This document shows, piece after piece, positions 5,873 through 62,640 of a stretch of DNA of 64,000 nt. The stretch is from assembly GCA_017528345.1 (NCBI GenBank), contig JAFXOX010000081.1, positions 1-64,000 of the forward strand. Direction: 5' to 3'. Both the position numbers and the translations under genes were made by a program. Positions within the stretch are counted from its first letter, which is position 1; each line of letters opens with the position of its first letter. The notes beneath the pieces are model-generated. The model did not search any database. It saw nothing but the letters and a program-made list of their open reading frames with translations, and was not told where the DNA came from. This DNA comes from Desulfovibrio sp. Lineage in GTDB: Bacteria; Desulfobacterota; Desulfovibrionia; Desulfovibrionales; Desulfovibrionaceae.

Positions 5873-7725
5873 GTAACAGCTCACGTACCTACAAAAGGCG
5901 TGAAAAAGGAGGGGCTTCCTTTCCCCTCCAGGTATCCAAAAGTTGATTGGTGTTTTTGTGTTCAAAGAGCGTGCTGATTCGGTAGAAAGCAGCAGTCGTT
6001 GCCGTACATCCATGCATTGTTCAGACGCCAAACGGACTTGCGTATCCAGTAGGTTTGTGGACGCGTCATATTGTGATAACAGTCGATTGCCTTAACCAGA
6101 ACCGTAAAATACGATCTCCCGTGCAAGGCACACGTCTTTCTCAAAGAGAGGCTCCTCTCTATCCAGCGTTCTCCCTTTGGTGCGGAGGATCCAAAGCTTA
6201 TCTTTCGATGACAGACAGCCGTTCTTATCTGTCGTTCGGCGAAATTGTTGGTCTTATCCACCAATGGTTCTGTCACAAAGAACCAGAGAGACTCGAAGTT
6301 CTTCTCAAGACGACGTACAAAGGCTCCGGCATGACCCTTGAGATGGCCAAAGCGACGAGCAAGCTTTACTATACGAGACTTCAGAGCCCAAATATCGCCC
6401 ACAGTCGTAGATTCCGAGCTCATATCGCATAGAGTCTTAAAGAATGAGCCGGCCAGTTCCCCAAGCTTTCTTTCTTCGGGGTTTGCGCTTTGTTTCAGTT
6501 TCAGGATCTCCCTTTTGAGATGGGCCAGACAGCTTTGCCTGTAACCTTCCCACAATTGGTAGATCCTATAGTCATCTGAGATGAGTATTCCTCGCCATTC
6601 TCCAATCAGCCTGTAAAAGGCCTCCTTGGATCGATGCTCATCAATCATGAAATAAGCAAGCAAGCAGCATCCCATGAACCACAGCCAGTGCAGGTGTTTA
6701 CCCATCTGGCCGTGTGTTGGCCACGAGGTCTCATCAATGTGGCAAGCTGGGCATTTGCGAACACTCTTACCTATGACTTTGTGATGAGGATCAATGGCTT
6801 CAGAGGCTCTCTCTACGACATTTTGGATGCCACCCTGGCTGATGTCCAGACCAAAAATGTCCATCAGCAGCTTCCGAACCTGTCTTCTTGGCAGACCAGC
6901 TTCACTCAGCAGATAGGCTATAAGCGCTGAAAGCCGGCTTCCGTAGCTCGTTTGATATTCTTGAGGAACAGCCCCCTTAACGACCTTGTGGCAGTTCGAA
7001 CACCGTCCTTTAAAGATACGGAAGAGGATGACTATCAGACAAACCACAGGAAGCTCTATGTATTGAAAATGGGAGCATTCCGTGAGGTCATCAAAATGCG
7101 TTCCGCCACAGTGCGGGCAAACCTGAGGAACACACTGCCGTTCTTCAGTCGGCGTCATAGGCTTCTGTGCGGCACCGCGATGATAAGGCCTCTTCTTGGG
7201 CTTAGCGTGATTTTCTGAGTTATCAGCAGTCTCGGAAGTTGATGGCTTAGAGTCATTCTGAGAAGAAGGCTTTGAGCGATCAACAAATGGAGGATCAGTT
7301 GAAGGGGGACGGTTAGAGTTGGTCGAGTTCGTATTGAGCCGGTTTTCCAGTTCCTGATTACGGCGCGTCAATGAGTCGATTATCTTGTCCTTCTGGTCAA
7401 GAAGCTTCTTGGCTCCGTCAAGTTCTTCCTTAAGGACTGCATTTTCAGTCTTAAGAGCCTGGTTCTCAAGCTTGAAGTCCTCATATCCCTTTGACAAAGC
7501 ATCGATTAACGACAGCGTCCATGGCGAGAGACCCTGAGTCTTCGAAGGCAAGCTTAGGAAGCTGAAAAGAGGGGGAAAGGAAATGGGACTTGAAGAGTTT
7601 TCCATAAAAAAAGTAATGCAAAATTCTGCCCATTTATCAACAGAAAACCTCACGAAACTCTATGCGAAAACCTCCCTATGAAACTGCCAAATATCGCGTT
7701 TTTTTTCGGACACGTGAGCGGTTAC
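5873..7725 (-). mobile_element. Complete IS66-family insertion sequence
   Basis: The element is 1853 bp long. The terminal inverted repeats are GTAACAGCTCACGTA at 5873-5887 and, on the opposite strand, GTAACCGCTCACGTG at 7725-7711 (13 of 15 matching, GTAA start as expected for IS66). It carries one transposase gene and no tnpA/tnpB accessory genes, like the single-gene IS66 subgroup. The flanking 8-bp direct repeats are identical, which indicates a fairly recent insertion. It landed between the membrane hydrolase gene and the amidase gene without breaking either. Confidence 0.95.
5962..7605 (-). CDS. IS66-family transposase
   Basis: The protein has about 547 residues from the ATG at 7605. 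A longer frame starting at 7653 has an upstream ATG, but MENSSSP is the likelier start. Order of parts: a Leu-zipper-like coiled coil (LENQALKTENAVLKEEL), a Pro/Ser-rich linker, a zinc-finger region (CPHCGGTHF and CSNCHKVV), then the DDE catalytic domain with Asp in HIDETSW, Asp in LISDDY and Glu in NFAERQIRTA. No frameshift is visible, so the enzyme could be active. It is the only gene in the element bounded by the inverted repeats at 5873 and 7725. Confidence 0.95.
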   Translation of the reverse strand: MENSSSPISFPPLFSFLSLPSKTQGLSPWTLSLIDALSKGYEDFKLENQALKTENAVLKEELDGAKKLLDQKDKIIDSLTRRNQELENRLNTNSTNSNRPPSTDPPFVDRSKPSSQNDSKPSTSETADNSENHAKPKKRPYHRGAAQKPMTPTEERQCVPQVCPHCGGTHFDDLTECSHFQYIELPVVCLIVILFRIFKGRCSNCHKVVKGAVPQEYQTSYGSRLSALIAYLLSEAGLPRRQVRKLLMDIFGLDISQGGIQNVVERASEAIDPHHKVIGKSVRKCPACHIDETSWPTHGQMGKHLHWLWFMGCCLLAYFMIDEHRSKEAFYRLIGEWRGILISDDYRIYQLWEGYRQSCLAHLKREILKLKQSANPEERKLGELAGSFFKTLCDMSSESTTVGDIWALKSRIVKLARRFGHLKGHAGAFVRRLEKNFESLWFFVTEPLVDKTNNFAERQIRTAVCHRKISFGSSAPKGERWIERSLSLRKTCALHGRSYFTVLVKAIDCYHNMTRPQTYWIRKSVWRLNNAWMYGNDCCFLPNQHAL

Positions 7726-7733
7726 CAAAAAGA
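7726..7733. repeat. Right 8-bp target-site duplication of the IS66 element
   Basis: CAAAAAGA follows the right inverted repeat directly and is identical to 5865-5872. Confidence 0.95.
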
Positions 7734-9952: not shown

Positions 9953-11512
9953 TCAATGTTTCCAGCCAAGAGCTGCGGAAGGGCAGAGGCTGGCAATGGT
10001 TTCCTGAACAGCATTGGCCTGATCGGTGTTTTTGGCAAGGGTAAAGGCCTCGCGTGCGGCTATCAGCACATCAAGAGCCAGGGATGTGTCCCACCTGTCA
10101 ATCTGCCGCTCTTGGAGCTCTTTGAGCAATCCTTGGGCGAGAGCGGCTGCGATGTTGCGCTCACCAGATCGGCACAAAAGGCGAAGCTCGCGAACTCGCA
10201 GGGCCATATTCTGGGCAGGTGAGGATCCCTGAGCCTTTTCAAGCAGCTGCAAAGAAGCCCCAAGCTCTTTGTTGGCATACAGTCGCTCTGCCTCAGCTAA
10301 AAGTTCAGCCAGCGCATCATCGGAAACACGTTGCGGGCTTTGTGAAGGTTCTCCATTTTTTGCTTGCGGCTCTTCGCACGTTCCAAGAGAAGAGAGCCAC
10401 GCTTGGGTTTCGTCGCTTGCAAAGGCAACGCCTCCGTCAAAGCTCAGCTGTTCAAGTCCTGGCAGACGTTTGAGAAAGGCCGCTGTTTCCTTCTGTACCA
10501 GCCTGCGTGCGGCGGCATAGCTTTCTCCAAGCTCTCCAAGGGCTTTGTCGACAATACACTGCAAATCAAGGCAAAAGATGGCTGTGGCAAAGAGATCCTC
10601 GGCGGCAAGCGCAGCCTCAAGATATTTCCCGGTCGCAAGGGTCTTCTTCAGACCTGCCAGGCGATCAGCATCTGGCGGTGGAATGGGGGTCTGCCCATTG
10701 TCTGCCGGTGGCAGGTGGGTCACTTTGCTCCAGAGAGCCAGGCGCATGATCTGCCAGGCTAAGGGATCTTCCGGGTTTTCCCGATGGGCCAGAAGGGCGT
10801 AGCGGACACCGGCTGCCGAAAAGTCCTTGAGGGCTGTTGGCAGATCATCTGCCGAGGGCTGCTCAGATAAAGCTGGGGCGGGAGCTTGCGTCGGAGCCTG
10901 AGCTTGGGGCGCAGGCGGTGCTGGTTCTGCTTCCTGCACCTTTGTCGTCTCTTCTTGCTGCTGGGTGTTTTCCTGCTCGGCAGGCAGTCTGCGTACGGTT
11001 TCCATGAGGTCTCTGAGTGGCACAGCATCTGGCATGAGCTCGCTAGCCAACTGATCAAGACTTGAAAGCTCCTCGTTCAGCTGCTTAAGCATTTCCGCAG
11101 GCTGCGCCGTTTGCTCGCCGTCTTTCTCAAGCTCTGCCAAAGCGCGTTCATGCCACCAGTCAAAGGCATTGGTGCGTCTGCGAAGCTTGTTTACGGGCGG
11201 AAATGCCGTTTCCCAAAATGTGCCAAGCAGGCCGAGGTAGAGTTGAACGGCCTTGTGAAATCCTGCCAGTCCCTCAGTTTTTTGCCAGGCAATACCGACA
11301 TAGGCTGCAATCTGCAGATCCTTGGTTTTTTGAGCAAGAAGGATTTCTCCCTGCTGAGCGATTTTTGTCCAGGCGACAGCCCCTCCCTGTGTGGCACTCC
11401 CAAGCTTGCTGATTTCTTCAGATACTTCGGTATATTCAGGCTCGTACTTGGCATCCATGCCTGCGGCATGTTCTCCGGGGATGGGAGTTGTCCCTAGTGT
11501 TGTGGCATCCAT
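9953..11512 (-). CDS. tssA: Type VI secretion baseplate-associated protein TssA
   Basis: The 519-residue protein has an N-terminal ImpA domain (PIPGEHAAGMDAKYEPEYTEV, then the helical AAYVGIAWQKTEGLAGFHKA and the RRTNAFDWWHERAL segment). A Pro/Ala/Gln-rich linker follows at about residues 185-225, then a long helical C-terminal VasJ-like region. TssA initiates and caps sheath polymerisation with TssB/TssC. Family length and order fit. The following gene in a typical cluster would be tssB, but here the only tssB start is ~9.8 kb downstream at position 140, on the same strand. No obvious partner lies immediately upstream of it. Confidence 0.9.
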   Translation of the reverse strand: MDATTLGTTPIPGEHAAGMDAKYEPEYTEVSEEISKLGSATQGGAVAWTKIAQQGEILLAQKTKDLQIAAYVGIAWQKTEGLAGFHKAVQLYLGLLGTFWETAFPPVNKLRRRTNAFDWWHERALAELEKDGEQTAQPAEMLKQLNEELSSLDQLASELMPDAVPLRDLMETVRRLPAEQENTQQQEETTKVQEAEPAPPAPQAQAPTQAPAPALSEQPSADDLPTALKDFSAAGVRYALLAHRENPEDPLAWQIMRLALWSKVTHLPPADNGQTPIPPPDADRLAGLKKTLATGKYLEAALAAEDLFATAIFCLDLQCIVDKALGELGESYAAARRLVQKETAAFLKRLPGLEQLSFDGGVAFASDETQAWLSSLGTCEEPQAKNGEPSQSPQRVSDDALAELLAEAERLYANKELGASLQLLEKAQGSSPAQNMALRVRELRLLCRSGERNIAAALAQGLLKELQERQIDRWDTSLALDVLIAAREAFTLAKNTDQANAVQETIASLCPSAALGWKH

Positions 11513-11739
11513 TGGTTGTAGCCTTGATTGTGGTTTGTTGTACTATGGTTGACCTGTGGCCAATGGCCAGAATCTGCAGAGTACGTGAAAGAGAAGAAGC
11601 GTGTGCGCCTTGGCTTTGTCGCTTCTTGAAAAGCTAACGGAAGGCCGGTTTGCGCTTTTGAGCGTAAGATAAGGAGTCGCGTGGACGAAGCCGTTGGTGT
11701 ATTTGCTACAAAAAGAGGGGACGCACAGAGGCAAGGTCT

Positions 11740-12408
11740 CTACTTGCTTGCGATGTTCGCCTGTGCCAGTCCGTGCAGTAAAACGTGAACGTATTTCTGC
11801 ACAGTACGTTGTATTGTCTCTGCACAAGGTATTTCTTTCATGTCAAAGAGAAACTGTGTGTAGACAGTATTGCGCAGCATGCCCACAAAAATGGCAGAAA
11901 CCTCATGGCAGTCCGCAAACCCCACGTCATCTCTGTCACTGGCTTTTTGCAAAAGCTCCGTGAGTTTTGCCTCCACACGTTTCGGCCCATTTTCATGATA
12001 GAGCCTGCCCAGTTCAGGATTGGAAACGCTTTCCATAATCACAAGGCGCATGAAGTTCCATTCTTCTGTGAAGAGCTGTGTCAGAAGAAGCTCGCCTGAG
12101 CGTACGAGCACAGCTTCTGTCGTCATCGGAGCCGCATCAAGGCCATCGAGGATCTTGAAGATGGAGAGGCTTGTCTCAGCGAGCAGGGCGTTGAAAAGGC
12201 CTTTTTTGCTCACAAAAAGCGTATAGAGACTACGCCTTGAGCCACCGCTGAGGCGAATGATGTCATCAATGCTTGAGTCCGTATAACCCTTGGTGAAAAA
12301 AATTTTCTTGGCTGCCTGCAAAATCTTCGTACGTCGCAAATCCTTAGACAGACGCTTGTGGGTTCTGGCCTCCTGACGTTCCAGAGCCTGTGAAAAGCTA
12401 TTACTCAT
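11740..12408 (-). CDS. TetR-family transcriptional regulator
   Basis: From the ATG at 12408, which has a GGGAGG site 10 bases upstream, the protein has about 222 residues. The frame is open to 12504, but the earlier ATGs lack good ribosome sites. The N-terminal helix-turn-helix is typical of TetR: RTKILQAAKKIFFTKGYTDS, then SIDDIIRLSGGSRRSLYTLF with the recognition helix. The C-terminal half is a helical ligand/dimer domain (TetR_C-like; FTEEWNFMRLVIMESVSNPE). It is divergent from the acyl-CoA synthetase gene 94 bases away and probably represses that gene, perhaps sensing an acyl-CoA or its substrate acid. Confidence 0.9.
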   Translation of the reverse strand: MSNSFSQALERQEARTHKRLSKDLRRTKILQAAKKIFFTKGYTDSSIDDIIRLSGGSRRSLYTLFVSKKGLFNALLAETSLSIFKILDGLDAAPMTTEAVLVRSGELLLTQLFTEEWNFMRLVIMESVSNPELGRLYHENGPKRVEAKLTELLQKASDRDDVGFADCHEVSAIFVGMLRNTVYTQFLFDMKEIPCAETIQRTVQKYVHVLLHGLAQANIASK

Positions 12409-12450
12409 GCTGCGCGAGCCTCCCATGATTTCTTGACTCATAGCGCAGCA

Positions 12451-12462
12451 ACAAGTACATGT
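12451..12462. promoter_or_regulatory. Possible TetR operator in the divergent promoter region
   Basis: ACAAGTACATGT is a 12-bp interrupted palindrome (ACA-n-GTAC-n-TGT) lying between the regulator and synthetase starts. Its position is what one expects for an autoregulatory TetR site. The assignment is inferred from symmetry and position only. Confidence 0.4.
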
Positions 12463-12502
12463 CAAAAAAAAATGAGAATATAGAATACCAAGGAGCTTAT
12501 TC

Positions 12503-14119
12503 ATGGATATCCATCAACGCTTTTGCCATGAAGTCTTCGATAGCAGTGGGCAGATTGTGGAGTTCAGCCTGGACTACCCGGACAATTTCAACTTTGCCTA
12601 TGACGTGCTTGATAGACTCGCTGACATGAGCCCCTCAAGTCGTGCTCTTTGCTGGTGCAATGGGCGGGGGCAGGAAGAGGAGCTCACATTTGGCGAGCTT
12701 GCCCTTGCCAGCAGACGTTGCGCCAATGCCCTGCGAGCCTTTGGGGTTGGCAAGGGCGACCATGTGCTTGTGATTTTGAGACGAAATCTTCCTTACTGGT
12801 ATGTGGCGTCGGCTCTAGAACGCCTGGGCGCTGTGATGGTGCCAAGCACGCATATGCTGACGCGCGAAGATATTGGCTACAGACTTGAGCACGCTAAAAT
12901 CCGTTTTGCCATTGCTTCTTCAGAAGGCGCAACACTTGAGGTGCTTTCAGGTTTTCCCTGTCTTGAGCGCATTTTTACCTTTGGTCGTTGTCATGAGGCT
13001 GTGGTCAATCTGACTGAAGTGATGACGCAAATGCCGGATACCTTTGCGCGGGTGGAAACTTCAGCCCAGGAACCCATGCTGATTTTTTTCACCTCTGGCA
13101 CCACAGGGCATCCCAAGGGCGTCATCCACAATCATCTCTATAGTCTCGCCCATATTCCAACGGCCAAGTATTGGCAGAAAGTACGCGATGGCGGTCTCCA
13201 TCTGACCATTGCCGAAACCGGCTGGGGTAAGGCCAGCTGGGGGAAAATGTACGGACAGTGGCTGTGCGGAAGTGCCGTCATGATCTATGACTTTGAGCAT
13301 TTTTCTCCGGCAAGCATTCTTGAAATCATCAGCCGCTACAGAGTCACTTCTTTTTGTGCGCCCCCAACCATCTACCGCTATCTGACGCGGTGTCGGTGCA
13401 AGGACTACGACCTCTCCTGTCTGGAGCATCTCTCGACAGCCGGTGAGGCCATGAGCTGTGAGGTGCACCGAAAAATTGAGGATATGTTGGCACTCCCCAT
13501 CCTCGAGGGTTTTGGACAGACTGAATCTGTACTCATGCTGGCCAATTTTGACTGTGCCCATCCTGGTTCACTGGGCAGACCAAGTCCGCTCTTTGATGTG
13601 CGCATTCGGCTGCCTGACGGACATTTTGCCGAAGGAGACGAGGAAGGAGAAATCGTCGTTGTTCCCCATGGCAAGCAGCACGGGATCTTTTCGGGCTACT
13701 GCAATCAACCCGAGCTTTATGACAAGGTGTGGGAAGACGGAGTTTACCATACCGGAGACATAGCCTGGCGCGATCAGGACGGACTATTCTGGTATGTGGG
13801 GCGAAAAGATGATCTTATCAAAACCCGCGGTTTCCGTGTTGGCCCCTTTGAAGTGGAAACCGTGCTTGAGCGTCATCCTGCCGTCCTTGAATGCGCCGTG
13901 ATCGGTGAGATGGACGCTACCCGCGGACAGATTGTTGTGGCCTTTGTGCAATTAGAGAATACCTATTCTCCTTCTGAAAGCCTTGCGCTTTCCATTCGTA
14001 CCTTCTGTAACGCCAAGCTTGCAGCCTACAAGCATGTCTCAAAGGTTGAATTTGTCAAAAGTCTTCCTAAGACCATTAGTGGAAAGGTCAAGCGCGGGCA
14101 GCTCCGCAAGAAAGTCTGA
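12503..14119 (+). CDS. AMP-forming acyl-CoA synthetase (medium-chain/aromatic acid type)
   Basis: The 538-residue protein belongs to the ANL superfamily and would activate a carboxylic acid with ATP to acyl-AMP and then acyl-CoA. The visible motifs are the P-loop FFTSGTTGHPKGV (~residue 193), the adenine-binding GFGQTES (~338), YHTGDIAW (~416), the hinge KTRGFRVGPFEVE (~437) and the catalytic C-terminal Lys in KTISGKVKR (~527). The overall pattern is close to medium-chain acyl-CoA or benzoate-CoA-type ligases. An AAGGAG site lies 8 bases before the ATG. It diverges from the TetR gene, its probable regulator. The exact acid cannot be read from sequence. Confidence 0.88.
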   Translation: MDIHQRFCHEVFDSSGQIVEFSLDYPDNFNFAYDVLDRLADMSPSSRALCWCNGRGQEEELTFGELALASRRCANALRAFGVGKGDHVLVILRRNLPYWYVASALERLGAVMVPSTHMLTREDIGYRLEHAKIRFAIASSEGATLEVLSGFPCLERIFTFGRCHEAVVNLTEVMTQMPDTFARVETSAQEPMLIFFTSGTTGHPKGVIHNHLYSLAHIPTAKYWQKVRDGGLHLTIAETGWGKASWGKMYGQWLCGSAVMIYDFEHFSPASILEIISRYRVTSFCAPPTIYRYLTRCRCKDYDLSCLEHLSTAGEAMSCEVHRKIEDMLALPILEGFGQTESVLMLANFDCAHPGSLGRPSPLFDVRIRLPDGHFAEGDEEGEIVVVPHGKQHGIFSGYCNQPELYDKVWEDGVYHTGDIAWRDQDGLFWYVGRKDDLIKTRGFRVGPFEVETVLERHPAVLECAVIGEMDATRGQIVVAFVQLENTYSPSESLALSIRTFCNAKLAAYKHVSKVEFVKSLPKTISGKVKRGQLRKKV

Positions 14120-14425: not shown

Positions 14426-14519
14426 TTGACACGACAATTTTTGCAGACTTTTTTAATCATCCCCTCGCATCAGCCTGCGCTATGCGAGCCCCGGTACCCT
14501 GCGGTGCCGGATTTTTTTT
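14426..14519 (+). ncRNA. Candidate small RNA with its own promoter and terminator
   Basis: A TTGACA box at 14426-14431 is followed by a T-rich possible -10 region near 14449-14457 (spacing not ideal). It is followed at once by two stems: CTCGCAT 14464-14470 with ATGCGAG 14482-14488, then CCGGTACC 14491-14498 with GGTGCCGG 14503-14510. A run of eight T residues ends it at 14512-14519. No open frame fits in between. It could be a ~60-nt regulatory RNA or simply a distal terminator for the synthetase gene that ends 340 bases upstream. Confidence 0.4.
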
Positions 14520-14539
14520 GTCGTTATTGAGGCAAAGAC

Positions 14540-14650
14540 AGAGAGGAGGATGATGTTGACGAGCTGTGCTTGGCACAAGAGAGGGGTATGAGCGCTGAGG
14601 TCATACCTTTGGAGGCTGGAGCAAAAGACTATCACTAAGCGATCCCCCGG
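14540..14650 (+). repeat. Dispersed ~110-nt repeat, copy A
   Basis: This stretch is closely similar to 35035-35141 on the same strand, including the shared cores GAGCGCTGAGGTCA and CAAAAGACTATCAC. Small indels break any shared reading frame, which argues for a non-coding element. A hairpin GGTATG/CATACC (14585-14590 with 14602-14607) surrounds the conserved AGCGCTGAGGT loop. No other copy was found in the window. Around it (14120-15188) I see no protein gene. Confidence 0.6.
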
Positions 14651-15010
14651 AGATGAGGCTTAAAGGTAAGCGTAAACTGAATTTTTCTTAACCTGTCATT
14701 CCCGAATTTTTTTGTACTACAAGTTTTTGCCTCTTTGTGATTGTGACGTCAGCTGTTGAGGCAGTGACTATGAGTCGTTTTACTTGATCATGCACAATTG
14801 CCACACCACGCGACCATGATTGACAAGGCAGCAATACTCGCGACAGCTGAGTGAGTGTACAGCAAAATCATCAATCTATAAGACTATTGGCTGTGTTTAA
14901 GAGAGCGCTGATCCCCAGGAGAGGTGATGGAAAGTTCTGCTACGGACAAGGATTTTTGTCCCCATGGCTCTGTTTTTCCCAATGAATATTTAAGCTCAGT
15001 TTACGGTTAC

Positions 15011-15821: not shown

Positions 15822-16613
15822 GGTGAGACAAAGGGCAAATGAGGCGTAAAGAGACAGGTAGGAAAGCCAAAAGCATGAGCTAAGGGAGGTGCGTCATGCC
15901 AGTGAACGTACTCCCGCCTATAGAGGCCGGAGCTTCCTGATTCAGCGAGAACAGCACTGCAGCTCCGAAGAACTACAGCGTCTTACACTCTCTCCACAGG
16001 CGTAGATTCCCGTGCGACCCACGGTACTCTATGAGTTACGTTAGGCAGATATTCGCCTCGTTTCTTCTCGGATGTTTAGGATCTATAATAGTCGAGGAGT
16101 GAGTTTTGGTTTAGGTGTGCGCTTGAGAGGTTCGGGTAGCTTCTGCGAGATTGGCAGGCTACGATAATGGTTATTATGGCCGATTTCATCAACAATCATG
16201 GGGATGCAGGTGTGTCTGCTACCATACAAGGTCACGCATCTTGTAAAGATAGAGAATAGAGCACAGTGGAAAATATGCATGACATATTCTGATCTACATT
16301 CATTTTTATGATAAATGCACACATCATCAGGCTTTAAGCAAAGAATTCTTCAGCGTTATCTTGTTGCCAAATTTGCCAAGGAAGTTGGAGTGCAGTTATG
16401 TGTAACTGTCAAGATGTACAAGCGCATCGTAATTTAGTGTATAGATATTCAGTAATTCGATACATGCTTCTGAATAAAACCATTATACAACGATAATATA
16501 AAATATATCTAATTATAATAAGAAATAAAACCATCTTGGAATATTATATATATTACATTTATTGATATTTTATAAGTATTAAATTATATTTTATTAAAAA
16601 AAAGTAGGTATCT
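15822..16613. other. Intergenic stretch with a GC-to-AT transition
   Basis: About 790 bases without a convincing gene. The first half has the GC level of the neighbouring host genes. From about 16400 onward the sequence becomes very AT-rich, matching the PIN-domain module that follows. This suggests the left edge of a separately acquired segment. No att site or repeat was identified. Confidence 0.4.
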
Positions 16614-21846: not shown

Positions 21847-22056
21847 ATGGAAACAATTGTTCGCGCCCTGCATTCGACCCTGTCCGTCATGCGGTCCACA
21901 GTGATCGGATTGTCATCAGGCCAGACCGATATCTTCGAGGGGAGCATGCTCCTCAACAGGGAACGTGCGAAATTCATCGCGGCGGCGAAAGCGCTCCGCC
22001 TTGAGGCCGAGATGCGCTGGGCGGCCTTCGACGCGCTCTTCAGCAAGACTGCGTGA
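21847..22056 (+). CDS. Small hypothetical protein
   Basis: A 69-residue protein starts at 21847 with a strong GGAGG site 6 bases before the ATG. It reads METIVRALHSTLSVMRSTVI and ends FDALFSKTA. It is helical, without signal peptide, and belongs to no family I recognise. It follows the HigA-like stop by 14 bases, so it was probably in the same operon. The stop is 150 bases before the ankyrin gene. Confidence 0.6.
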   Translation: METIVRALHSTLSVMRSTVIGLSSGQTDIFEGSMLLNRERAKFIAAAKALRLEAEMRWAAFDALFSKTA

Positions 22057-22205
22057 GGAGAACACGCTTAAAGGGAATACATGCCCCAATCGAGCAGGCG
22101 TGGCCGGATTCCCGGCCCGCGTCTCTCACACCACCTGATATGAAAAGACAACAACCACCTCCCGCCTCCGAGAGATCTGTGGAGCCTGGCGCAAGGAGAT
22201 CGAAC

Positions 22206-24515
22206 ATGCTGAAGCAATGCCTCTTGGCATCGGCCATTATTCTGCTGCTGGAAACGACGGCTTGGGCGAACATCTGGAAAGCGGCGGAGAATGGTGATGT
22301 GCAGACCGTCCTGAAGGAGATCGCAGACGGCGCGGACGTGAACGCGAGGGACGAGCACCAATGGATGCCCCTGCACTTGGCGACGGAAGCGGGCAATGCG
22401 GAAATGGTCAGGCTCCTTATTGCCAAGGGGGCGGACGTGAATGCAAGAGGCTGGAACGACGAGACGCCACTGCATCGGGCCGTGTTTTGGGGGAAAGCCG
22501 ACATGATCGATCTGCTTTTAGCCAATGGCGCGGACGTGAACGCGAAAGACTGCCAGGGCAGGACGCCGCTGATCTCCGCTGGGAGTTGCCACACAGCCGC
22601 CGTCGTGAAATCGCTTCTTGCCGGGGGCGCGAACGTGAACGCGAAAGACAAGTTCGGCTTGACACCGCTCCATGAAGCGGCGGATTCCGGGAGTGCCGAG
22701 GCTGCGAAGCTGCTTCTTGAAAAAGGCGCCGAAGTGAACGCGAAGAGCGGCAGTGGAGAGACGCCGTTAAACAAGGCGATAAACAGCTGTTATGCAGACA
22801 TGGCCGCGCTGCTTATCACCCATGGCGCCGACGTGGCTTGCGACGGTAAATCAGGGCTGACTCTCCTGCATCGCGCCGTCATCTTGCGGGATGGCGAGAC
22901 GGCGGCTTCGCTCGCGGCACGCAGGGAGGTTGTCAGCCGAAAAGATGCGAAAGGCAGGACTCCGCTGCATCTTGCTGGAATTCTTGGCTATGCGGACATG
23001 GTCCGTCTGCTCCTTGCAAACGGCGCCGAAGTGAACGCGAAGGATAATGAAGGTCAGACGGCGCTGTCATTGGCGTTGGAGAAAGGCCGTGCGGATATTG
23101 TCAGCCTGATCCTTGATAGCGGGGCCGACGCTAACGCGAAAGACAAGAAAGGAAAGACCGCGCTGCACAAGGCGGCGGTTGCCGGCAATGCGGAAATTGC
23201 CGGGCTCCTCATCGCCAAGGGCGCGCAGGTGAACGTGAAAGACGCGGTCAATATGACGCCGCTGGAGAGCGCCGTGGACAACGGGCATGCGGACCTTGTC
23301 AGCCTGCTTATCGACAAAGGCGCCAACGTCAATGCGAAAGGTACGTATCACCAAACGCCGCTGCATAAGGCTGCGGATATAGGTCGCGTTGACATGGCCA
23401 GAATGCTGATCGCCAAGGGCGCCGACGTGAACGCAACAGATTATGGCGGCAATACGCCGCTTTGCATCGCCGCGGAAAAAGGCAACGCTGACATGGTCAG
23501 GCTGCTTCTCGCCAAGGGCGCGAATGTGAATGCGAAAGGCAAGGACGGCGTAACACCGCTGCATATAGCCGCGGATTATGGACGAATTGACGTTGTCGAA
23601 ACGCTCCTCGCCAAGGGCGCGAAAGTGAACGCAACAGATTATGGCGGCAATACGCCGCTTTGCATCGCCGCGGAAAAAGGCAACGCTGACATGGTCAGGC
23701 TGCTTCTCGCCAAGGGCGCGAATGTGAATGCGAAAGACAAGGACGACGTAACACCGCTGCATATAGCCGCGGATTATGGACGAATTGACGTTGTCGAAAC
23801 GCTCCTCGCCAAGGGCGCCGACGTGAACTCTAAAGATGATGGGGGCAGTACACCGCTCTCAATGGCCTCGGAAAGCGCCAGCACCAGCATGATTGAGCTG
23901 CTTCTCGCCAACGGCGCAGACGTGAACGCGAAAGATGAGGACGGCGTTACGCCGCTGCATAAAGCGAAGACTGAGGAGATAGCCAAGCTGCTCATTGAAA
24001 AAGGTGCCCGGGATACGCCGGATGAGGATGGCGAAACGGCGCTGCATGAGTTTTGCTTCAAATCCTTTGTTGACGCGGTCAGGCTCTTGATCGAGAAAGG
24101 CGCTGATGTAAACGCTAAAGACAGCGATGGCAGGACGCCATTGCACAGAACCGCTAACGGGGGGAATGCCTATATTGTCAGCCTGCTCGTTGCCAAGGGC
24201 GCAGACGTGAATGCGAATGATAGTGACGGCAGAACGCCGCTGCACATTGCGGCGGAACACATGCACGCGGACGCCGCCGAAGCGCTCATCGCCAGAGGAG
24301 CCGACGTGAACGCTAAAGACAAGTACGGCATGACGCCCCTGCACATCGCAGCTAAAGAGGGGAATGAGAATGAGGTGAAGCTCCTCATAGCTCATGGCGC
24401 GGGCAGGAACGCGAAAATCTCAGGCGGGGAATACGACGGCTGCACGCCGCTCGACATCGCGGAGAAGATGAAGTGGGAAGGAACAGTCAATCTGCTGAAA
24501 GCAGCAACGCCTTGA
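22206..24515 (+). CDS. Secreted ankyrin-repeat protein
   Basis: The start at 22206 (AAGGAG site, 7-base spacing) gives 769 residues. It begins with a signal peptide (MLKQCLLASAIILLLETTAW, cut after AWA) and then NIWKAAENGDVQTVLKEI, the capping repeat. More than 20 ankyrin repeats follow, each with the TPLHxAA and V-N-A-K-D signatures, to the end. No catalytic domain is present. Ankyrin repeats bind proteins, and export would place this one in the periplasm or outside. A 198-bp tandem duplication lies at 23430-23825. A paralogue (25776-28511) shares the signal peptide, cap and C-terminal GGEYDGCTPL segment. Immunity to a toxin or envelope binding are possible roles. Confidence 0.92.
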   Translation: MLKQCLLASAIILLLETTAWANIWKAAENGDVQTVLKEIADGADVNARDEHQWMPLHLATEAGNAEMVRLLIAKGADVNARGWNDETPLHRAVFWGKADMIDLLLANGADVNAKDCQGRTPLISAGSCHTAAVVKSLLAGGANVNAKDKFGLTPLHEAADSGSAEAAKLLLEKGAEVNAKSGSGETPLNKAINSCYADMAALLITHGADVACDGKSGLTLLHRAVILRDGETAASLAARREVVSRKDAKGRTPLHLAGILGYADMVRLLLANGAEVNAKDNEGQTALSLALEKGRADIVSLILDSGADANAKDKKGKTALHKAAVAGNAEIAGLLIAKGAQVNVKDAVNMTPLESAVDNGHADLVSLLIDKGANVNAKGTYHQTPLHKAADIGRVDMARMLIAKGADVNATDYGGNTPLCIAAEKGNADMVRLLLAKGANVNAKGKDGVTPLHIAADYGRIDVVETLLAKGAKVNATDYGGNTPLCIAAEKGNADMVRLLLAKGANVNAKDKDDVTPLHIAADYGRIDVVETLLAKGADVNSKDDGGSTPLSMASESASTSMIELLLANGADVNAKDEDGVTPLHKAKTEEIAKLLIEKGARDTPDEDGETALHEFCFKSFVDAVRLLIEKGADVNAKDSDGRTPLHRTANGGNAYIVSLLVAKGADVNANDSDGRTPLHIAAEHMHADAAEALIARGADVNAKDKYGMTPLHIAAKEGNENEVKLLIAHGAGRNAKISGGEYDGCTPLDIAEKMKWEGTVNLLKAATP
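23430..23825 (+). repeat. 198-bp tandem duplication inside the ankyrin gene
   Basis: Two almost identical 198-bp units (23430-23627 and 23628-23825) each encode two ankyrin repeats (NATDYGGNTPLCIAAEKGNA and onward). Only a few codons differ (for example KGKDGV versus KDKDDV). The period keeps the reading frame, so the protein grew by two repeats recently. Confidence 0.95.
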
Positions 24516-25094: not shown

Positions 25095-25775
25095 ATCAAG
25101 AGAGTGTTTTCTCCTCGACTTTCGACGGATCGAGCCGTAGTCCCGCCCTTTTCAGCTTGTACGTGTCACAGAGTTTTGCCCCACCGTACCCCTCCCATAA
25201 CCTGATGTCACCTCATGACTGGAAGGGTGTGCCTAGGGGGGCGACTTGCTCAACGTATTTTTGCATGAATCTTTAGGCCCTGCCACGGCCAAGGTCCTTG
25301 GAGAGGTCTTACTGGCCTCCCGGGGCAAAGGGGGGGGGATGGGTTATGCATTGAAAGAGAAAGCCGTTGCGCTCTTCTGCAAAAGAGAGAAGTGCGCGTA
25401 CGGCTCACAGTGCTTTGCCTTCAAAAACAAAACAAGAGAACTGTAGCCCCCCCGTGTGTATGTTGACATTTTTAGCAGGGTGTCCGCACGGAAGAATCCA
25501 AAAGCTGACTCGATTTCACGGCGTCTTTTGAGCGCCTCTTCGATGTTCGAGAGTATGGTCGTGGGTAATCGATCCGGGTGCAGAGTTCGAAAAATATTAC
25601 GTGATCCTCTCTGTGCAAGCTGAATACGCAAAGGGCATTGTGGTCTTGCTGCTTTCCTTCTTCAAGAAAATATGTCATCAGTACGGTGCAACAGCGCATA
25701 CCATAAGGACAGACAAGCTTGTCAATATGTTGCGTTTCTGTGAGAGTACACGCGCGTCCCGCAAAGGAGAGATAT
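25095..25775. other. Gene-free stretch between the two ankyrin genes
   Basis: About 680 bases with no gene that I can support. An open frame on the minus strand (25344-25631) reads EEALKRRREIESAFGFFRA, which loosely resembles the end of a transposase, but I could not assign a family. A run of nine G residues lies at 25332-25340. The last ~60 bases hold the ribosome site of the second ankyrin gene. Confidence 0.4.
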
Positions 25776-28511
25776 ATGGTACAACAATGCTTGTGTGCTA
25801 TTGCTATAGTACTGCTGATATCTGGGTCGGCTTGGGGGAATATTTGGGATGCAGCAAGGGAAGGGGATGTTCAGACTGTCCAAAAGGAAATCGAAAGTGG
25901 AGTTGCCGTAAGCGCGGTGGACAGTGATTTCATGACCCCGCTCCACTGGGCAGCAATCCGCGGGCAGGTGGAGATGATTAAATTCCTCATTGCCAAGGGC
26001 GCTGCCGTTGACGCGAAAGATATCGATAATAGGACACCGCTCACAAACATGCTGGAGAATGGTAATGGGGCAGAAGCATGGTTCATGGAGGTGAGCAAAC
26101 TGCTCATTGCCAACGGTGCCGACGTGAATGTGAAGGATCGCTATGGCATGACAGCGCTCCACTGGGCAGCTGCTCTGGGGGATGCGGGGCTGGTTAGCTT
26201 GCTTCTTGCCAAAGGGGCTGAGATCAACTCGAAAAACAATGCCAGTGGGATACCACTTCATTCAGCAGCAGTTATGGGCTTCGCTGATGTGACCTCTATA
26301 CTTCTTGCCCACAGGGCTGACGTGAATGCGAACGATAAGGACAACGAAACACCGCTGCACAGAGCAGCAGCCGAAGGTCATGCTGAGGTGGTCACACGTC
26401 TGCTTCTGGATAATGGGGTCGAAGTCAACGCTCAGGATGTAAAAGGCGAGTCCGCATTACATAAAGCAGCAGTCAATGATCATGCTGAGGTGGTTAAGCT
26501 CCTTCTGGCCAATGGAGCTCAGATCAATGCTACGGATATGCACGGCAAGACCTCTGTACACAAGGCAGCAGAAAATGGTCACGCCGATGTGGTTGCGCTC
26601 CTTTTGGCCAAGGGTGCCGATGTGGTCTGCAATGAAAAAACAGGGCTTACGCAATTGCACCGCGCTGTTATTAGGCGCAATATGGCGATGATTAGCTCCT
26701 TGTCACAGGACAAAACGCTGATCAACCAAAAAGATGCAGACGGTCAAACCCCTTTACATTTTGCCGCTCTTCTTGGGGATGTTGACGTCGTGAAGCTCTT
26801 GCTGGCCAACAAAGCGGACGTCGATTTGAAGGACAACAAGAAAAAAACGCCCCTGGACGGAGCACATGAGAAAGGCTCTACCGATGTAGTCGTGCTCCTT
26901 CTTGAAAGCAGCGCGAACAAGAGCGTGCAGGGTACTGCCCTGTTGCATGAGGCTGTGAAAAATAACCAGCTCAGCTGGGTTACAGTCCTTCTTGAGAAGG
27001 GCGCTGATGTGAATGGGAGAGACGTCCAAGGGCTTACACCACTGCATCTGGTTAAAAATGTCGATATTGCCAAGCTGCTCATAGAGAAGGGCGCTGATGT
27101 GAACGCGAGAAATGAAGAGGATGAGACGCCTTTATACAGTTGCGTGGGAATGAGTGATAATCGAGACCTGATTAGGCTGTTGATAGAGAAAGGCGCTGAT
27201 GTTAATGCGCAAACCAAGTCCGGATGGACTGCGCTGCATTGGGTTGAGAATGTCGATATTGCCAAGCTGCTCATAGAGAAGGGCGCTAATGTTAATGCGC
27301 AAACCAAGTCCGGATGGACTGCGCTGCTTTATGTTGTCTGTTCTGAAAATGAGTACCCAATTGAGCTGCCACAACTACTCATTGCCAATGGTTCCGACGT
27401 CAACGCGTGCTTGTTAGATAGTGACAATGGCTATTTTGGGAGAACGGCGCTGTACTGTGCGGCCAATCGGGGGCGTGTGGACGTGTCTAGGCTCTTGATT
27501 GACAAGGGCGCGGATATCAATGTGAAAGACCAGAACGGTGAAACACCGCTGATAACAGCTTTAGATAATGGTCATGCCGACGTGGCCATGCTCTTGATCG
27601 ACAAGGGTGTGAATGTGAGGCTGCAAAGCAACCATGGCATGAGTCCCTTGCATGGAGCTGCGAGTAGTGGCTTGATTGACGTGGTCAGGCTGCTCCTTGA
27701 AAAAGGAGAGGATGTGAATGTGGCAACCGACAGCGGCTTCACAGCTCTGCACGCTGCCGGGAAGCATAGTAACGTAATCAGACTGCTTATCGACAAGGGA
27801 GCAAACGTCAACGCGAAACTCACGGAATGGGACCCAGGCCAGACGCCCCTCTATAGGGCAGAGACAGGTGCCGTTGCCAGGCTCCTTATTGAAAAGGGCG
27901 CTGACGTGAATGTGAAAGACAATTCTGGCCAAACCCCGCTGCACGAAGCTGTAATCAGAGGCAATGAGGATGTTGTCGCGGTTCTTCTTGAGAAGGGTGC
28001 GGATGCGCAAGCACAGGATACAAAGGGTGACACCCCACTGCACAATGTATGGAGAGTTAGCGTGGCCGATATGCTTCTTAGGCAGGGCGTGAACGTGAAT
28101 ACGAAAAATTATGAGGGACAAACGCCGCTGCACATTGCTGGTGCAGATTCTATGTTGTATCCTGACATGGCTGAATTTCTCATCGCCAACGGCGCTGCCG
28201 TGAATGTCAAAGATCAGAGCGGCGTAACGCCTCTACACCTTGCGGCAAAGAAAGGTTGGAGGAACGTGCTGGAGCTGCTTCTTGCCAGGGGTGCTGACGT
28301 GAACGCGAAAGACAAGACTGGCATGACGCCCCTGCACCTTGCTGCCAAGGAAGGCCATCTTGGGGTAGTGACGGTACTCCTTAAACGAGGTGCCGATAGA
28401 AACGCAAAAATTGTAGGCGGAGAATATGATGGTTGCACACCGCTTGCTCTAGCAGAGGAAATGGAGGAAGCAGAAATCGTCACACTGCTGAAGAATGATA
28501 CGCCTGAATAG
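25776..28511 (+). CDS. Secreted ankyrin-repeat protein, second paralogue
   Basis: The ATG at 25776 (AAAGGAGA site) gives 911 residues. The signal peptide (MVQQCLCAIAIVLLISGSAW, cut after AWG) and cap (NIWDAAREGDVQTVQKEIES) match the first ankyrin protein. About 25 ankyrin repeats follow, with several irregular, shorter ones in the middle (LTPLHLVKNVDIAKLLIEKG units with a missing second helix). The C-terminus repeats the GGEYDGCTPLALAEEME segment of the paralogue. GC is lower than in the first copy and the two differ throughout, so the duplication is old. The protein would act outside the cytoplasm; no enzymatic part is present. Confidence 0.92.
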   Translation: MVQQCLCAIAIVLLISGSAWGNIWDAAREGDVQTVQKEIESGVAVSAVDSDFMTPLHWAAIRGQVEMIKFLIAKGAAVDAKDIDNRTPLTNMLENGNGAEAWFMEVSKLLIANGADVNVKDRYGMTALHWAAALGDAGLVSLLLAKGAEINSKNNASGIPLHSAAVMGFADVTSILLAHRADVNANDKDNETPLHRAAAEGHAEVVTRLLLDNGVEVNAQDVKGESALHKAAVNDHAEVVKLLLANGAQINATDMHGKTSVHKAAENGHADVVALLLAKGADVVCNEKTGLTQLHRAVIRRNMAMISSLSQDKTLINQKDADGQTPLHFAALLGDVDVVKLLLANKADVDLKDNKKKTPLDGAHEKGSTDVVVLLLESSANKSVQGTALLHEAVKNNQLSWVTVLLEKGADVNGRDVQGLTPLHLVKNVDIAKLLIEKGADVNARNEEDETPLYSCVGMSDNRDLIRLLIEKGADVNAQTKSGWTALHWVENVDIAKLLIEKGANVNAQTKSGWTALLYVVCSENEYPIELPQLLIANGSDVNACLLDSDNGYFGRTALYCAANRGRVDVSRLLIDKGADINVKDQNGETPLITALDNGHADVAMLLIDKGVNVRLQSNHGMSPLHGAASSGLIDVVRLLLEKGEDVNVATDSGFTALHAAGKHSNVIRLLIDKGANVNAKLTEWDPGQTPLYRAETGAVARLLIEKGADVNVKDNSGQTPLHEAVIRGNEDVVAVLLEKGADAQAQDTKGDTPLHNVWRVSVADMLLRQGVNVNTKNYEGQTPLHIAGADSMLYPDMAEFLIANGAAVNVKDQSGVTPLHLAAKKGWRNVLELLLARGADVNAKDKTGMTPLHLAAKEGHLGVVTVLLKRGADRNAKIVGGEYDGCTPLALAEEMEEAEIVTLLKNDTPE

Positions 28512-28877: not shown

Positions 28878-29513
28878 TCAATGAGTTACGCAAACAGAGC
28901 CTTTTGATATGCCTGTCCATATCAAAAATTTTTTTTGTATGGCGAGGTATTCAGAATAGTTATCCTCCAGAATTCTTATGAAATCGTCGCTGAATTTCTC
29001 CCAGTATGCGGATATTACGGCAGTAAAATTATGTTCGAATTGGTTTCTACTTTTTTTGAGGCTGATGCCGCATTCAGATAGAAATGACCGTGTTTGGTTA
29101 ATGAGTTCAGTGCGGTTTCGTACAAGACGTTCACGTCTTGACAAATAGTGCTTCATTACCTGCTGGCCAATTGTCTTCACTGTAACGAATCGTGTTCCGG
29201 GATGCATCAGGGCCTTACAGATGGCTTTATCATCAGCGGCATCAGTCTTATTATGATGCCCTAAAAACGCTTTAACCCGAATAGGCTGTATAAGTTTTGC
29301 TTCGTGACCTAATTCGATCAGGGTTCGTGCCCAGTGATGAGCTGTTCCACATGCTTCAATGCCAACCATGCAAGGCGGGAGGTTGGCAAAAAACAGAATT
29401 AGCTGCTTTCTTGTAAGCTTACGATTGGCAAGCGCGCGTCCCTTTTTGTCAGCTAGGAAAACCTGAAATACGTTCTTGGCAATGTCCAAACCAATGTAGT
29501 ACACTTTCTCCAT
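28878..29513 (-). pseudogene. IS110-family transposase, truncated
   Basis: From the ATG at 29513 the minus strand encodes the DEDD RuvC-like domain of IS110 transposases. Asp is in GLDIAKNVF, Glu in GIEACG and two Asp in KTDAADDKAI. The coiled linker with DNYSEYLAIQK follows. Homology ends there: a frame change at a run of eight T bases (28928-28935) leads to DRHIK in another frame, then unrelated sequence. The second domain with the catalytic Ser is missing, so the enzyme is not functional. It shares the linker with the fragment at 21401-21592. Confidence 0.85.
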
Positions 29514-29639
29514 GACCCGGTCTCCTATTTTCTGGCGTATCACAATGATTGCCTGTGGCACTTCTTGATGCCGGTGAGCGTATCGCTCCTTGGGGGCCGG
29601 GTCTATCCCCTCACCTTGTAACCATGTCTACGTCCTTTT

Positions 29640-30739: not shown

Positions 30740-30850
30740 AAAAAAGTAATGCAAAATTCTGCCCATTTGTCAACCGAAACTCACAAAACGCTATGCTCCC
30801 CTATGAAAGAGCCCAAAACCGCATTTTTTATCGAATGCATGAGCGGTTAC
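30740..30850. repeat. Terminal remnant related to the IS66 element
   Basis: A ~110-bp stretch resembles the right-hand end of the complete IS66 element at 7608-7725. It includes the shared AAAGTAATGCAAAATTCTGC core and the terminal GAGCGGTTAC at 30841-30850. No transposase gene is attached. It is a solo end left by an older copy or a sister element. Confidence 0.85.
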
Positions 30851-30945
30851 TAAAAATGAGGTACGTTCCCAGCCCCCCGTTTACGGTAATGCCGCAGTCA
30901 TCCACCTTGAACGCGTGCTGGAACCGGGCATCCACAAAGAGGAAA

Positions 30946-33701: not shown

Positions 33702-34355
33702 CTATTTTTGCCATGGCCTTGCCGTCGTCTCGTGCCGCCGGACATACGCCATGATGTCATCTTCGTGCCAGACGGTGGATTTAGCGGATAATCTGATTCC
33801 TTTCGGGATCTCGCCACGTTGGGCAAGCGCCCAGAAATGAGACTTCGAGCAGCCGAGCAGTGCGGCGGCCTCCTTGGCGTGCAGCATCCGCTCTGCGGAA
33901 CGGGCGGGCTCGGCCTGCGCCGGCCTCGGCGGTGTCACGGCCGGCTCGCGCCTGCCGCACTGCTGAATCGCCTTGATGTAATCCGGATTCTCCTTCTCGA
34001 GATGCAGGACATCGCCGAGGAGAAACCAGAGGAAGTCCTGCAGCATTGGGTCTCCGTTTTCGTCGACCGTCTCTTTGCCGCAGTCCGATGCCACCGGGCG
34101 GTTGCGCGCGTCGCGAACTTCCTGATGGAATTCATGCACTCTGACGAAGCGCAGCTCTCCGCGCCGCATGGGATGCAGATACATCGTCTCCTTGTCGGGC
34201 GTTCCGCTCGACGGGATCTCGATCTCGTACGGCGTCAGACCGTCAGGGTCGTTGATGAGACGCTCGATTTCATAGAGGGGTGCGTGCGGCCATCGTTTGA
34301 TGACTGCCCAGATGGACAGGCACTCGGCAATCGGGTAGCATTTTCCGTGTTCCAT
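33702..34355 (-). CDS. Excisionase-type helix-turn-helix protein
   Basis: The likely start is the ATG at 34355 (MEHGKCYPIAECLSIWAVIK), giving 217 residues. The N-terminal 130 residues are of unknown type and Trp/Pro-rich. A Pro-rich linker (TPPRPAQAEPARSAERM) precedes an AlpA/excisionase-like winged helix-turn-helix (LHAKEAAALLGCSKSHFWAL, then RGEIPKGIRLSAKSTVWHED with the DDIMAYVRRH helix). Such domains occur in prophage and integrative-element regulators, so it may be a relic of an integrated element that built the island. It has its own terminator at 33573-33602. Confidence 0.75.
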   Translation of the reverse strand: MEHGKCYPIAECLSIWAVIKRWPHAPLYEIERLINDPDGLTPYEIEIPSSGTPDKETMYLHPMRRGELRFVRVHEFHQEVRDARNRPVASDCGKETVDENGDPMLQDFLWFLLGDVLHLEKENPDYIKAIQQCGRREPAVTPPRPAQAEPARSAERMLHAKEAAALLGCSKSHFWALAQRGEIPKGIRLSAKSTVWHEDDIMAYVRRHETTARPWQK

Positions 34356-34569
34356 GGCCGGAATTATACCGCAGGCCGCGGGCATTGCCAAGAAAAACGT
34401 TCTGGGCTAAAATGCTCGCCCTCTGTTTTCGGGTCGCCGTCCGATCCGAAACGGCACCTTTTATCTCTGTTGGTAAATTTGTAGGTAACAAAAAAGTTAT
34501 GAAAATTTTTTTATAATGAATTTCAAATAGATATCTTCTACTTTGAAAACCTGAATTGACCTGATTAAA

Positions 34570-34607: not shown

Positions 34608-35034
34608 GCCAATCGATTGGAACGTAGGGATTCCTGGTGCAGCTATCGAGCGGCCTTAAAACTCTGTAAGGCTTTCTTCATTGAAACCTACCGCACGCAA
34701 AAGTATCAAGGTATGTTTGTAGTACTAAAGAAACAGGAAATGCCAATTCCTTCGCCATTTTCTTTGCTGCTTAGTTGTTCTAGACATTATCTATGTATTG
34801 CAAATGCTATCCACTGGTCTCTGAATCGAAGTTCACTTCTTTCGTTCAACAACCACGGACTTCCATAGTCCATGTAGCTGTTTAGCGTCACAATGGTCAG
34901 GAGCGCTAGTTGTCTGCCAAGCCTAACACTGATTTCTTTGAGGTTTTGCCATGAAAACGAACTACCTAAGCCCTATTTGCGCCATGCTTCGCAAAAGCAT
35001 GTAAGATCTTTTTCGTAATGGTTGTATAGATAGG

Positions 35035-35141
35035 AAGAGAGAGGATGCTTTTGACAAGCTGTGCTTGGCACAAGAGAGGTGCACGAGCGCTGAGGTCACA
35101 CCTTTGGAGGCTGAGCAAAAGACTATCACAAAGCGATCCCC
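35035..35141 (+). repeat. Dispersed ~110-nt repeat, copy B
   Basis: Copy B of the element at 14540-14650. The hairpin around the conserved AGCGCTGAGGT loop is kept: GGTG 35078-35081 pairs with CACC 35099-35102, where copy A has an A-T pair in place of one G-C pair. A CCCC/GGGG hairpin and the AAGGC/GCCTT hairpin follow, then a terminator at 35222-35257. The arrangement looks like a ~220-nt structured RNA. Confidence 0.6.
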
Positions 35142-35221
35142 AGAGGATGGGGCGCTAAGTAAGGCCAAGCCAGATAAGGCTTACGCCTTGCTCCTCAGAC
35201 TCGTCCACATATCTGCTCTTT

Positions 35222-35257
35222 GCTGTGTTACCTGAATACGGTAACGCAGCTTTTTTT
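35222..35257 (+). terminator. Strong rho-independent terminator after repeat copy B
   Basis: GCTGTGTTACC (35222-35232) pairs with GGTAACGCAGC (35240-35250) with one G-U pair, followed by seven T residues (35251-35257). Confidence 0.85.
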
Positions 35258-35341
35258 GGGTTCTCAGAGCAGGTAATCTCCAGACGCTAAGATTTTCCAC
35301 CGAGATCTTTCAGAGCGTACGCGATCGCTCTATTACCATTC

Positions 35342-61656: not shown

Positions 61657-62640
61657 TCACTCGTAGAAGATGCGCACGCCTGTCTCAAAGATCTTGTCTT
61701 CCACCAAGACCTTGAGATCATAGCAGCCGGAAAGACCGCGTTTGCTGATATTTTGCTTGATTGTGCGCTCATCGTCTTCCAGGTAGGCGCCTGAGCACAT
61801 GGCCAGATGATAGCTTGCCGCCGTATTGATGAAATAGCCGCGAGTTTCCGTGGCATTTTTGAGCAGGACCATGACGAGACTGCCACGCTCAAAGCGGCCG
61901 TGGAAGACGAGACGGTCATTGTCCTCTTCAATGGCAACCTGATGCCAGCTGCCAATCACCTCGCCGCATTCCGGCACATCCGGTATGGTGTCAAAGGTCT
62001 CGGTTTCTTCAAGCTCGCCTAGCAGGACTCCTTCGCCAAGGACGGCATTGTCGCCATCGTGATAGGGCAAGAGCTTTTCGGCTCTGTAGAAATTGCCGTC
62101 GACTTCCATGGCGTAGAGGACAACGCCGTCTTTTTGCTCAACGGTCTTGGCGCAGATATCAGTACTGGGATCTTTTTTGGGATCAAGGAAGGCACCTAAG
62201 GCATCTGAGGCATAGCCGTCCTTCCAGCCGATACCACCTGAGTGAATGAGGTAGTGTCCTTCGGCGTAGTACTCCACATTACAGATATAGGGCGAGAAAA
62301 AGGCTTCGCCAAGTTCTTTGCCGTATTGCCAGACCTGCTCAATTTCCATGGTCTTGGTGTTGAGATGATAGCGCACACCGCGTGAGAAATTGTCGCGGTT
62401 TCGGATATAGCGGGCTTTATTCTTGGAACGGTACTGGCCGTTATCAAAACACATGACATCGCCATCCGGGCAGATCACGCAGGCATGCTGCTCATACTGC
62501 CAGTCGAACTTGGCAAGATCCCCCACAGGCGTAAAGAAGTATTTCTGCATATCTTCGGGCCAGCCTTCGGGATCTCCCACAATCCAGTTGAGCTTGCCTG
62601 TGACAAAGTCGAAGTTGACCACAGCGTCCTTGTCGTTTGC
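61657..62640 (-). pseudogene. C-terminal part of an aryl-sulfate sulfotransferase
   Basis: The frame encodes ~325 residues that match the second half of AssT proteins: DKDAVVNFDFVTGKLNWIVG, YFFTPVGDLAKFDWQYEQHA, ICPDGDVMCFDNGQY, then LIHSGGIGWKDGY and a C-terminal beta domain. The N-terminal ~250 residues, including the Arylsulfotran_N domain and the start of the propeller, are absent. Homology starts at ~62630, exactly where a Crp-type fragment begins on the other strand. AssT moves a sulfate group between phenols. The copy cannot work alone unless an N-terminal module is joined to it by inversion. Confidence 0.8.
62435..62550 (-). repeat. 116-bp inverted repeat in AssT, left arm
   Basis: The reverse complement matches 63872-63987 with 7 mismatches in 116 bases (about 94%), including perfect runs of 27 and 28 bases. 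Flanking AssT sequence toward the N-terminus is only about 78% similar, so this core is unusually well kept. Confidence 0.9.

What the first reader, a model, noticed from the sequence alone, without database searches (positions are those of the whole stretch)
14540..14650. Dispersed ~110-nt RNA-like repeat shared with 35035-35141
Two same-strand copies 20 kb apart lie in gene-free DNA. They keep a hairpin around AGCGCTGAGGT with one compensating change (A-T to G-C). Copy B is followed by more hairpins and a strong terminator. Indels rule out a common protein frame. This could be an undescribed structured RNA family or a non-autonomous mobile repeat.
Basis: partly seen in the sequence, partly recalled or inferred. 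Interest (0 to 1): 0.6.

Follow-up and report, generated by a model that had tools for sequence, protein, structure and literature searches.

The report
Two-copy decayed non-coding repeat
A stretch of about 120 bases that codes for no recognisable protein occurs twice in one bacterial genome, at the edges of a region full of mobile-DNA debris, and looks more like a decaying relic than a new structured RNA family.

Summary
The repeat is real: 14540-14659 and 35036-35153, same strand, 88% identical (A-B alignment score 178 against at most 47 for shuffled copies). The structured-RNA reading is weak. Copy A folds no better than its shuffles (z 0.29), copy B modestly (z -2.14). The consensus fold is no better than column-shuffled alignments (131 of 300 as low). 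The quoted hairpin is perfect in A, but 4 of its 7 pairs break in B with no compensating change. Exactly two copies were found in the genome and no convincing one in 347 other genomes of the order; phages, plasmids, viral contigs, Rfam and protein libraries give nothing. The tract between the copies holds an IS110 transposase fragment, an AlpA-like gene, ankyrin genes and a solo IS66 end. Best reading: a non-coding mobile-element or junction relic, copied once and now drifting. One open point: the unique DNA after copy B is strongly hairpinned with a plus-strand terminator (z -5.0), so a transcript at that one locus is not excluded.

The parts
14540..14659 (+). Copy A of the repeat
   Evidence: blastn, local alignment; fold z 0.29 for 14535-14665 and 0.14 for 14540-14659
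35036..35153 (+). Copy B of the repeat
   Evidence: blastn, local alignment; fold z -2.14 for 35030-35158 and -1.91 for 35036-35153
14580..14610 (+).
   Evidence: fold; 4 of 7 pairs of the stem not paired in copy B
35155..35258 (+). Unique, strongly hairpinned stretch after copy B, ending in a terminator-like site 35222-35250
   Evidence: fold z -5.04; terminator scan; no second copy of 35150-35265 in the genome
14491..14510 (+). Terminator-like hairpin with T run just upstream of copy A
   Evidence: terminator scan; fold
34983..35001 (+). Smaller hairpin upstream of copy B, followed after a gap by a T run
   Evidence: fold; not listed as terminator-like by the scan

Best explanation
The repeat is a non-coding relic: a stretch of about 120-155 bp, most likely the end or junction sequence of a mobile element or island, that was copied once within this lineage and has drifted since. 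It now lies at the two edges of a 20.5-kb accessory tract. It most likely does nothing of its own today. Shown: two copies, same strand, 88% alike, no third copy found in the genome, mobile-element debris between them, no conserved fold. Inferred: that a mobile element did the copying, and that the copies are no longer under selection.
For: Two copies only in the own genome by blastn at E<=10 (other matches 14-22 bases) and by covariance model at E<=10. The tract between them holds an IS110 transposase fragment, an AlpA/HTH_17 gene, HicB and PIN proteins, an autotransporter fragment and two ankyrin-repeat genes, with an AMP-binding enzyme on one side and a NADH-dehydrogenase-like operon on the other. 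In-window precedent: 30740-30856 is a solo copy (79%) of the end of the IS66 element whose transposase lies at 5962-7653. Differences spread over all codon positions, no conserved fold, copy A unstructured.
Against: No terminal inverted repeat common to both copies, target-site duplication or matching transposase was found, so the mobile origin is indirect. 88% identity with long exact blocks could also reflect constraint. Copy B with its downstream hairpins folds unusually well (z -3.99 over 229 nt; 0 of 213 window segments as extreme).
Confidence: 0.55

Rival explanations
1. Copy B is the 5' part of a real small RNA of about 230 nt (35030-35258) with its own terminator, and copy A is a decayed partial duplicate.
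For: Fold z -3.99 for 35030-35258, more extreme than any of 213 sampled window segments after correction for G+C; plus-strand terminator-like site 35222-35250 with no plus-strand gene recognised just upstream.
Against: Most of the signal comes from unique DNA after the repeat: z -5.04 for 35155-35258 against -1.91 for the repeat alone. No plus-strand promoter-like site found at B. No relative of 35150-35265 elsewhere in the genome and no Rfam match at gathering scores. The minus strand of 35128-35258 also folds well (z -3.60).
Confidence: 0.15
2. The copies are the direct repeats (att-like) left by integration of a genomic island lying between 14.5 and 35.2 kb.
For: Direct orientation, exactly two copies, placed in the non-coding gaps after the AMP-binding gene (ends 14119) and beside the 3' end of the NADH-dehydrogenase-like operon (35342); mobile-type genes between.
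Against: No tRNA and no integrase among the ORFs scanned (only part of the ORFs were scanned). 88% identity over about 120 bp is long and diverged for an att core. G+C of the tract does not differ in a consistent way from both flanks. The 12 loci fetched from 10 relatives show no hit to the left-flank genes at 9953-14119, so no empty site could be read.
Confidence: 0.15
3. The copies are relics of the C-terminal end of one protein gene.
For: One shared open frame over 24 codons (ED..D.LCLAQER..SAEV.PLEA).
Against: No match in Pfam, NCBIfam or PHROGs, none better than E 0.12 in 198 other family genomes, none in plasmids, phages or viral contigs. Differences fall 3/3/1 on codon positions 1/2/3.
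Confidence: 0.1

Closest known systems
Solo insertion-sequence ends and similar IS relics (here the IS66 end at 30740-30856)
   Same: Short non-coding stretch stranded without its transposase, about 80-90% like its sister copy, in the same tract
   Different: For A/B no parent element was found in this genome
MITEs and REP/REPIN-type dispersed repeats (definitions recalled; PMC3116915, PMC8266576 and PMC12306157 seen only in a search listing with the start of the abstract)
   Same: Short, intergenic, dispersed, no recognised gene
   Different: Two copies only, not high copy number; no terminal inverted repeat shared by both copies was recognised
IS110-family bridge RNA (recalled)
   Same: Non-coding IS-end RNA; an IS110 transposase fragment lies in the same tract
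   Different: Neither copy adjoins an IS110 transposase; the fragment is at 28878-29561

Membership tests
Structured RNA family | Covariation supporting a shared fold | tested here: not met
   0 of 7 pairs of the named hairpin with a change on both sides, 4 of 7 broken in B; RNAalifold has 1 of 29 pairs with both sides changed; consensus energy reached by 131 of 300 column shuffles. Only two sequences, so power is low.
Structured RNA family | Further members in other genomes | tested here: not met
   Covariance model: 2 of 61 genus genomes at E<=1, the own genome and one match at 0.19; blastn: 2 of 348 order genomes at E<=0.02, the own genome and one 21-nt match at 0.013
Structured RNA family | Transcription | not testable with these tools
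   No expression data
MITE / non-autonomous transposon | Terminal inverted repeats shared by copies | tested here: inconclusive
   By eye, copy B has an imperfect GGATGCTTTTGA / TCACAAAGCGATCC pairing near its ends that copy A largely lacks (sequences); no dedicated inverted-repeat search was run on the copies
MITE / non-autonomous transposon | Target-site duplication and partner transposase | tested here: inconclusive
   No third copy, hence no parent element found in the genome; target-site duplications not examined systematically
att direct repeats of an integrated island | Empty site in a relative | not testable with these tools
   No close strain held; operon proteins of 10 relatives are mostly about 47-78% identical

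The most novel reading that the evidence does not exclude
35030-35258 encodes an unnamed, strongly structured small RNA of the accessory tract, whose 5' module was copied to 14.54 kb, giving two RNAs that share a sequence module.
Probability: 0.1. Interest if true: 0.4.

Novelty: new member of a known kind. Interest (0 to 1): 0.15.

Why it matters
As it stands it is one more low-copy non-coding repeat in mobile-element debris. It would matter only if copy B proves to be transcribed, or if the pair marks the ends of a once mobile 20-kb island.

Tried and rejected
Rfam at gathering scores on the window (no match, 4227 families) and at E<=5 on the two loci (3 weak matches, all on L002 and below their gathering scores; the His_leader one, at L002 950-1069, lies outside the repeat). 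DNA patterns in viral contigs (0 each) and genome contigs (0; 13 loci of a gapped pattern in unrelated phyla; around the match they align to the copies with scores of 24-46, the range of shuffled sequence; taken as chance). Weak hits at L003, L005, L020, L022, L025 and L027 were looked at: L020, L025 and L027 lie in long open frames; the three whose alignments were printed (L003, L005, L020) do not extend beyond about 45 nt. Phage and plasmid blastn and tblastn: no match. Papers: (listings only, no paper opened) gave nothing specific; this is not a claim that nothing is in print. The idea that A/B belong to a TnpB element was checked against 7 loci with the TnpB zinc-ribbon family and failed. 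The idea that the repeat at 15902-16078 is a TnpB 3' end rests on recalled motifs and was not confirmed: it aligns with none of those 7 loci.

Limits: searches drew 149 and 199 genomes from a larger family; one search used stricter filters; one search lists only matches at E<=0.02; the first-look step scored a capped number of candidates per genome. In one search, 37 of 149 genomes had a match at E<=0.5; apart from the two copies in the own genome all were short (at most 38 nt) and at E>=0.026, and I treat them as chance.

Full report
Observation. The two stretches align without doubt: 14540-14659 and 35036-35153, plus strand, 88% identity. The alignment score is 178; the best of 100 shuffles of each copy against the whole window is 43 and 47. 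A weaker alignment reaches 14517-14671 and 35009-35164. In the whole own genome (2.9 Mb, 85 contigs) blastn at E<=10 gives, besides these two, only matches of 14-22 bases at E>=0.38, and a covariance model at E<=10 gives only the two.

Structure. Copy A (14535-14665) folds like its dinucleotide shuffles, z 0.29; copy B (35030-35158) has z -2.14. The RNAalifold consensus has 29 pairs, of which 1 has changes on both sides, and its energy (-21.3) is reached by 131 of 300 column-shuffled alignments. B makes a different, shifted hairpin from the same stretch. With two sequences, lack of covariation is weak evidence, but nothing positive supports a shared fold.

What follows copy B. The unique DNA 35155-35258 folds very well (z -5.04) and ends in a plus-strand terminator-like site; the 229 nt from 35030 have z -3.99, and 0 of 213 sampled window segments are as extreme after correction for G+C. 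The same span from copy A has z 1.11. The strong structure therefore belongs mostly to B's own surroundings, not to the repeat. No plus-strand promoter-like site was found at B. This is the best surviving case for a transcript, at one locus.

Coding. The first 73 nt of the copies share a frame open in both, but their 7 differences fall 3, 3 and 1 on codon positions 1, 2 and 3, and no protein library or genome search gives a relative: Pfam, NCBIfam, PHROGs, 199 family genomes (9 with a match at E<=1, best outside the own genome 0.12), plasmids, phages, viral contigs.

Distribution. DNA: 1 of 61 genomes at E<=0.01, the own genome; 2 of 348 order genomes at E<=0.02, the own genome and one 21-nt match. 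Covariance model: 2 of 61 genus genomes at E<=1, the own genome and one at 0.19. Phages and plasmids: none. The nearest genomes held are not close: in the loci fetched from 10 congeners, proteins of the neighbouring operon are mostly about 47-78% identical, so a fast-evolving element would be invisible there.

Setting. Between the copies lie an IS110 transposase fragment (28878-29561), an AlpA/HTH_17 gene (33702-34391), HicB and PIN proteins, an autotransporter fragment and two ankyrin-repeat genes. Left of copy A is an AMP-binding enzyme (12503-14119), right of copy B a NADH-dehydrogenase-like operon. A second short two-place repeat of the window, 7607-7731 and 30740-30856, is explained: the first copy is the end of an IS66 element (transposase 5962-7653) and the second is a stranded end. 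A and B look like the same kind of debris, but their parent element was not found in this genome.

Verdict. A real, ordinary, low-copy non-coding repeat, most likely a relic (0.55), with a small-RNA rival at copy B (0.15), an island-junction rival (0.15) and a protein relic (0.1).

Noticed in passing
window 15902-16078: A second dispersed repeat of up to 177 nt with further copies on contigs C70 (95%), C71 (two), C39 and C79 of the same genome. From memory it resembles the 3' end of a TnpB-type element on the minus strand; not confirmed.
   Followed up: partly
window 14889-14989: A 100-nt stretch with one other copy in the genome at C80:39479-39584, 78% identical, not matched in Rfam.
   Followed up: partly
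window 30740-30856: Stranded end of the IS66 element whose transposase lies at 5962-7653; further partial copies of the end on C73, C54, C17 and at C32:92682-92752.
   Followed up: yes
window 62422-62592 and 63830-64000: Inverted repeat of 171 nt at 89% identity at the edge of the window, overlapping the arylsulfotransferase gene on one side.
   Followed up: no
window 22053-24515 and 25719-28511: Two large ankyrin-repeat genes with about 99-nt internal repeats inside the accessory tract.
   Followed up: no
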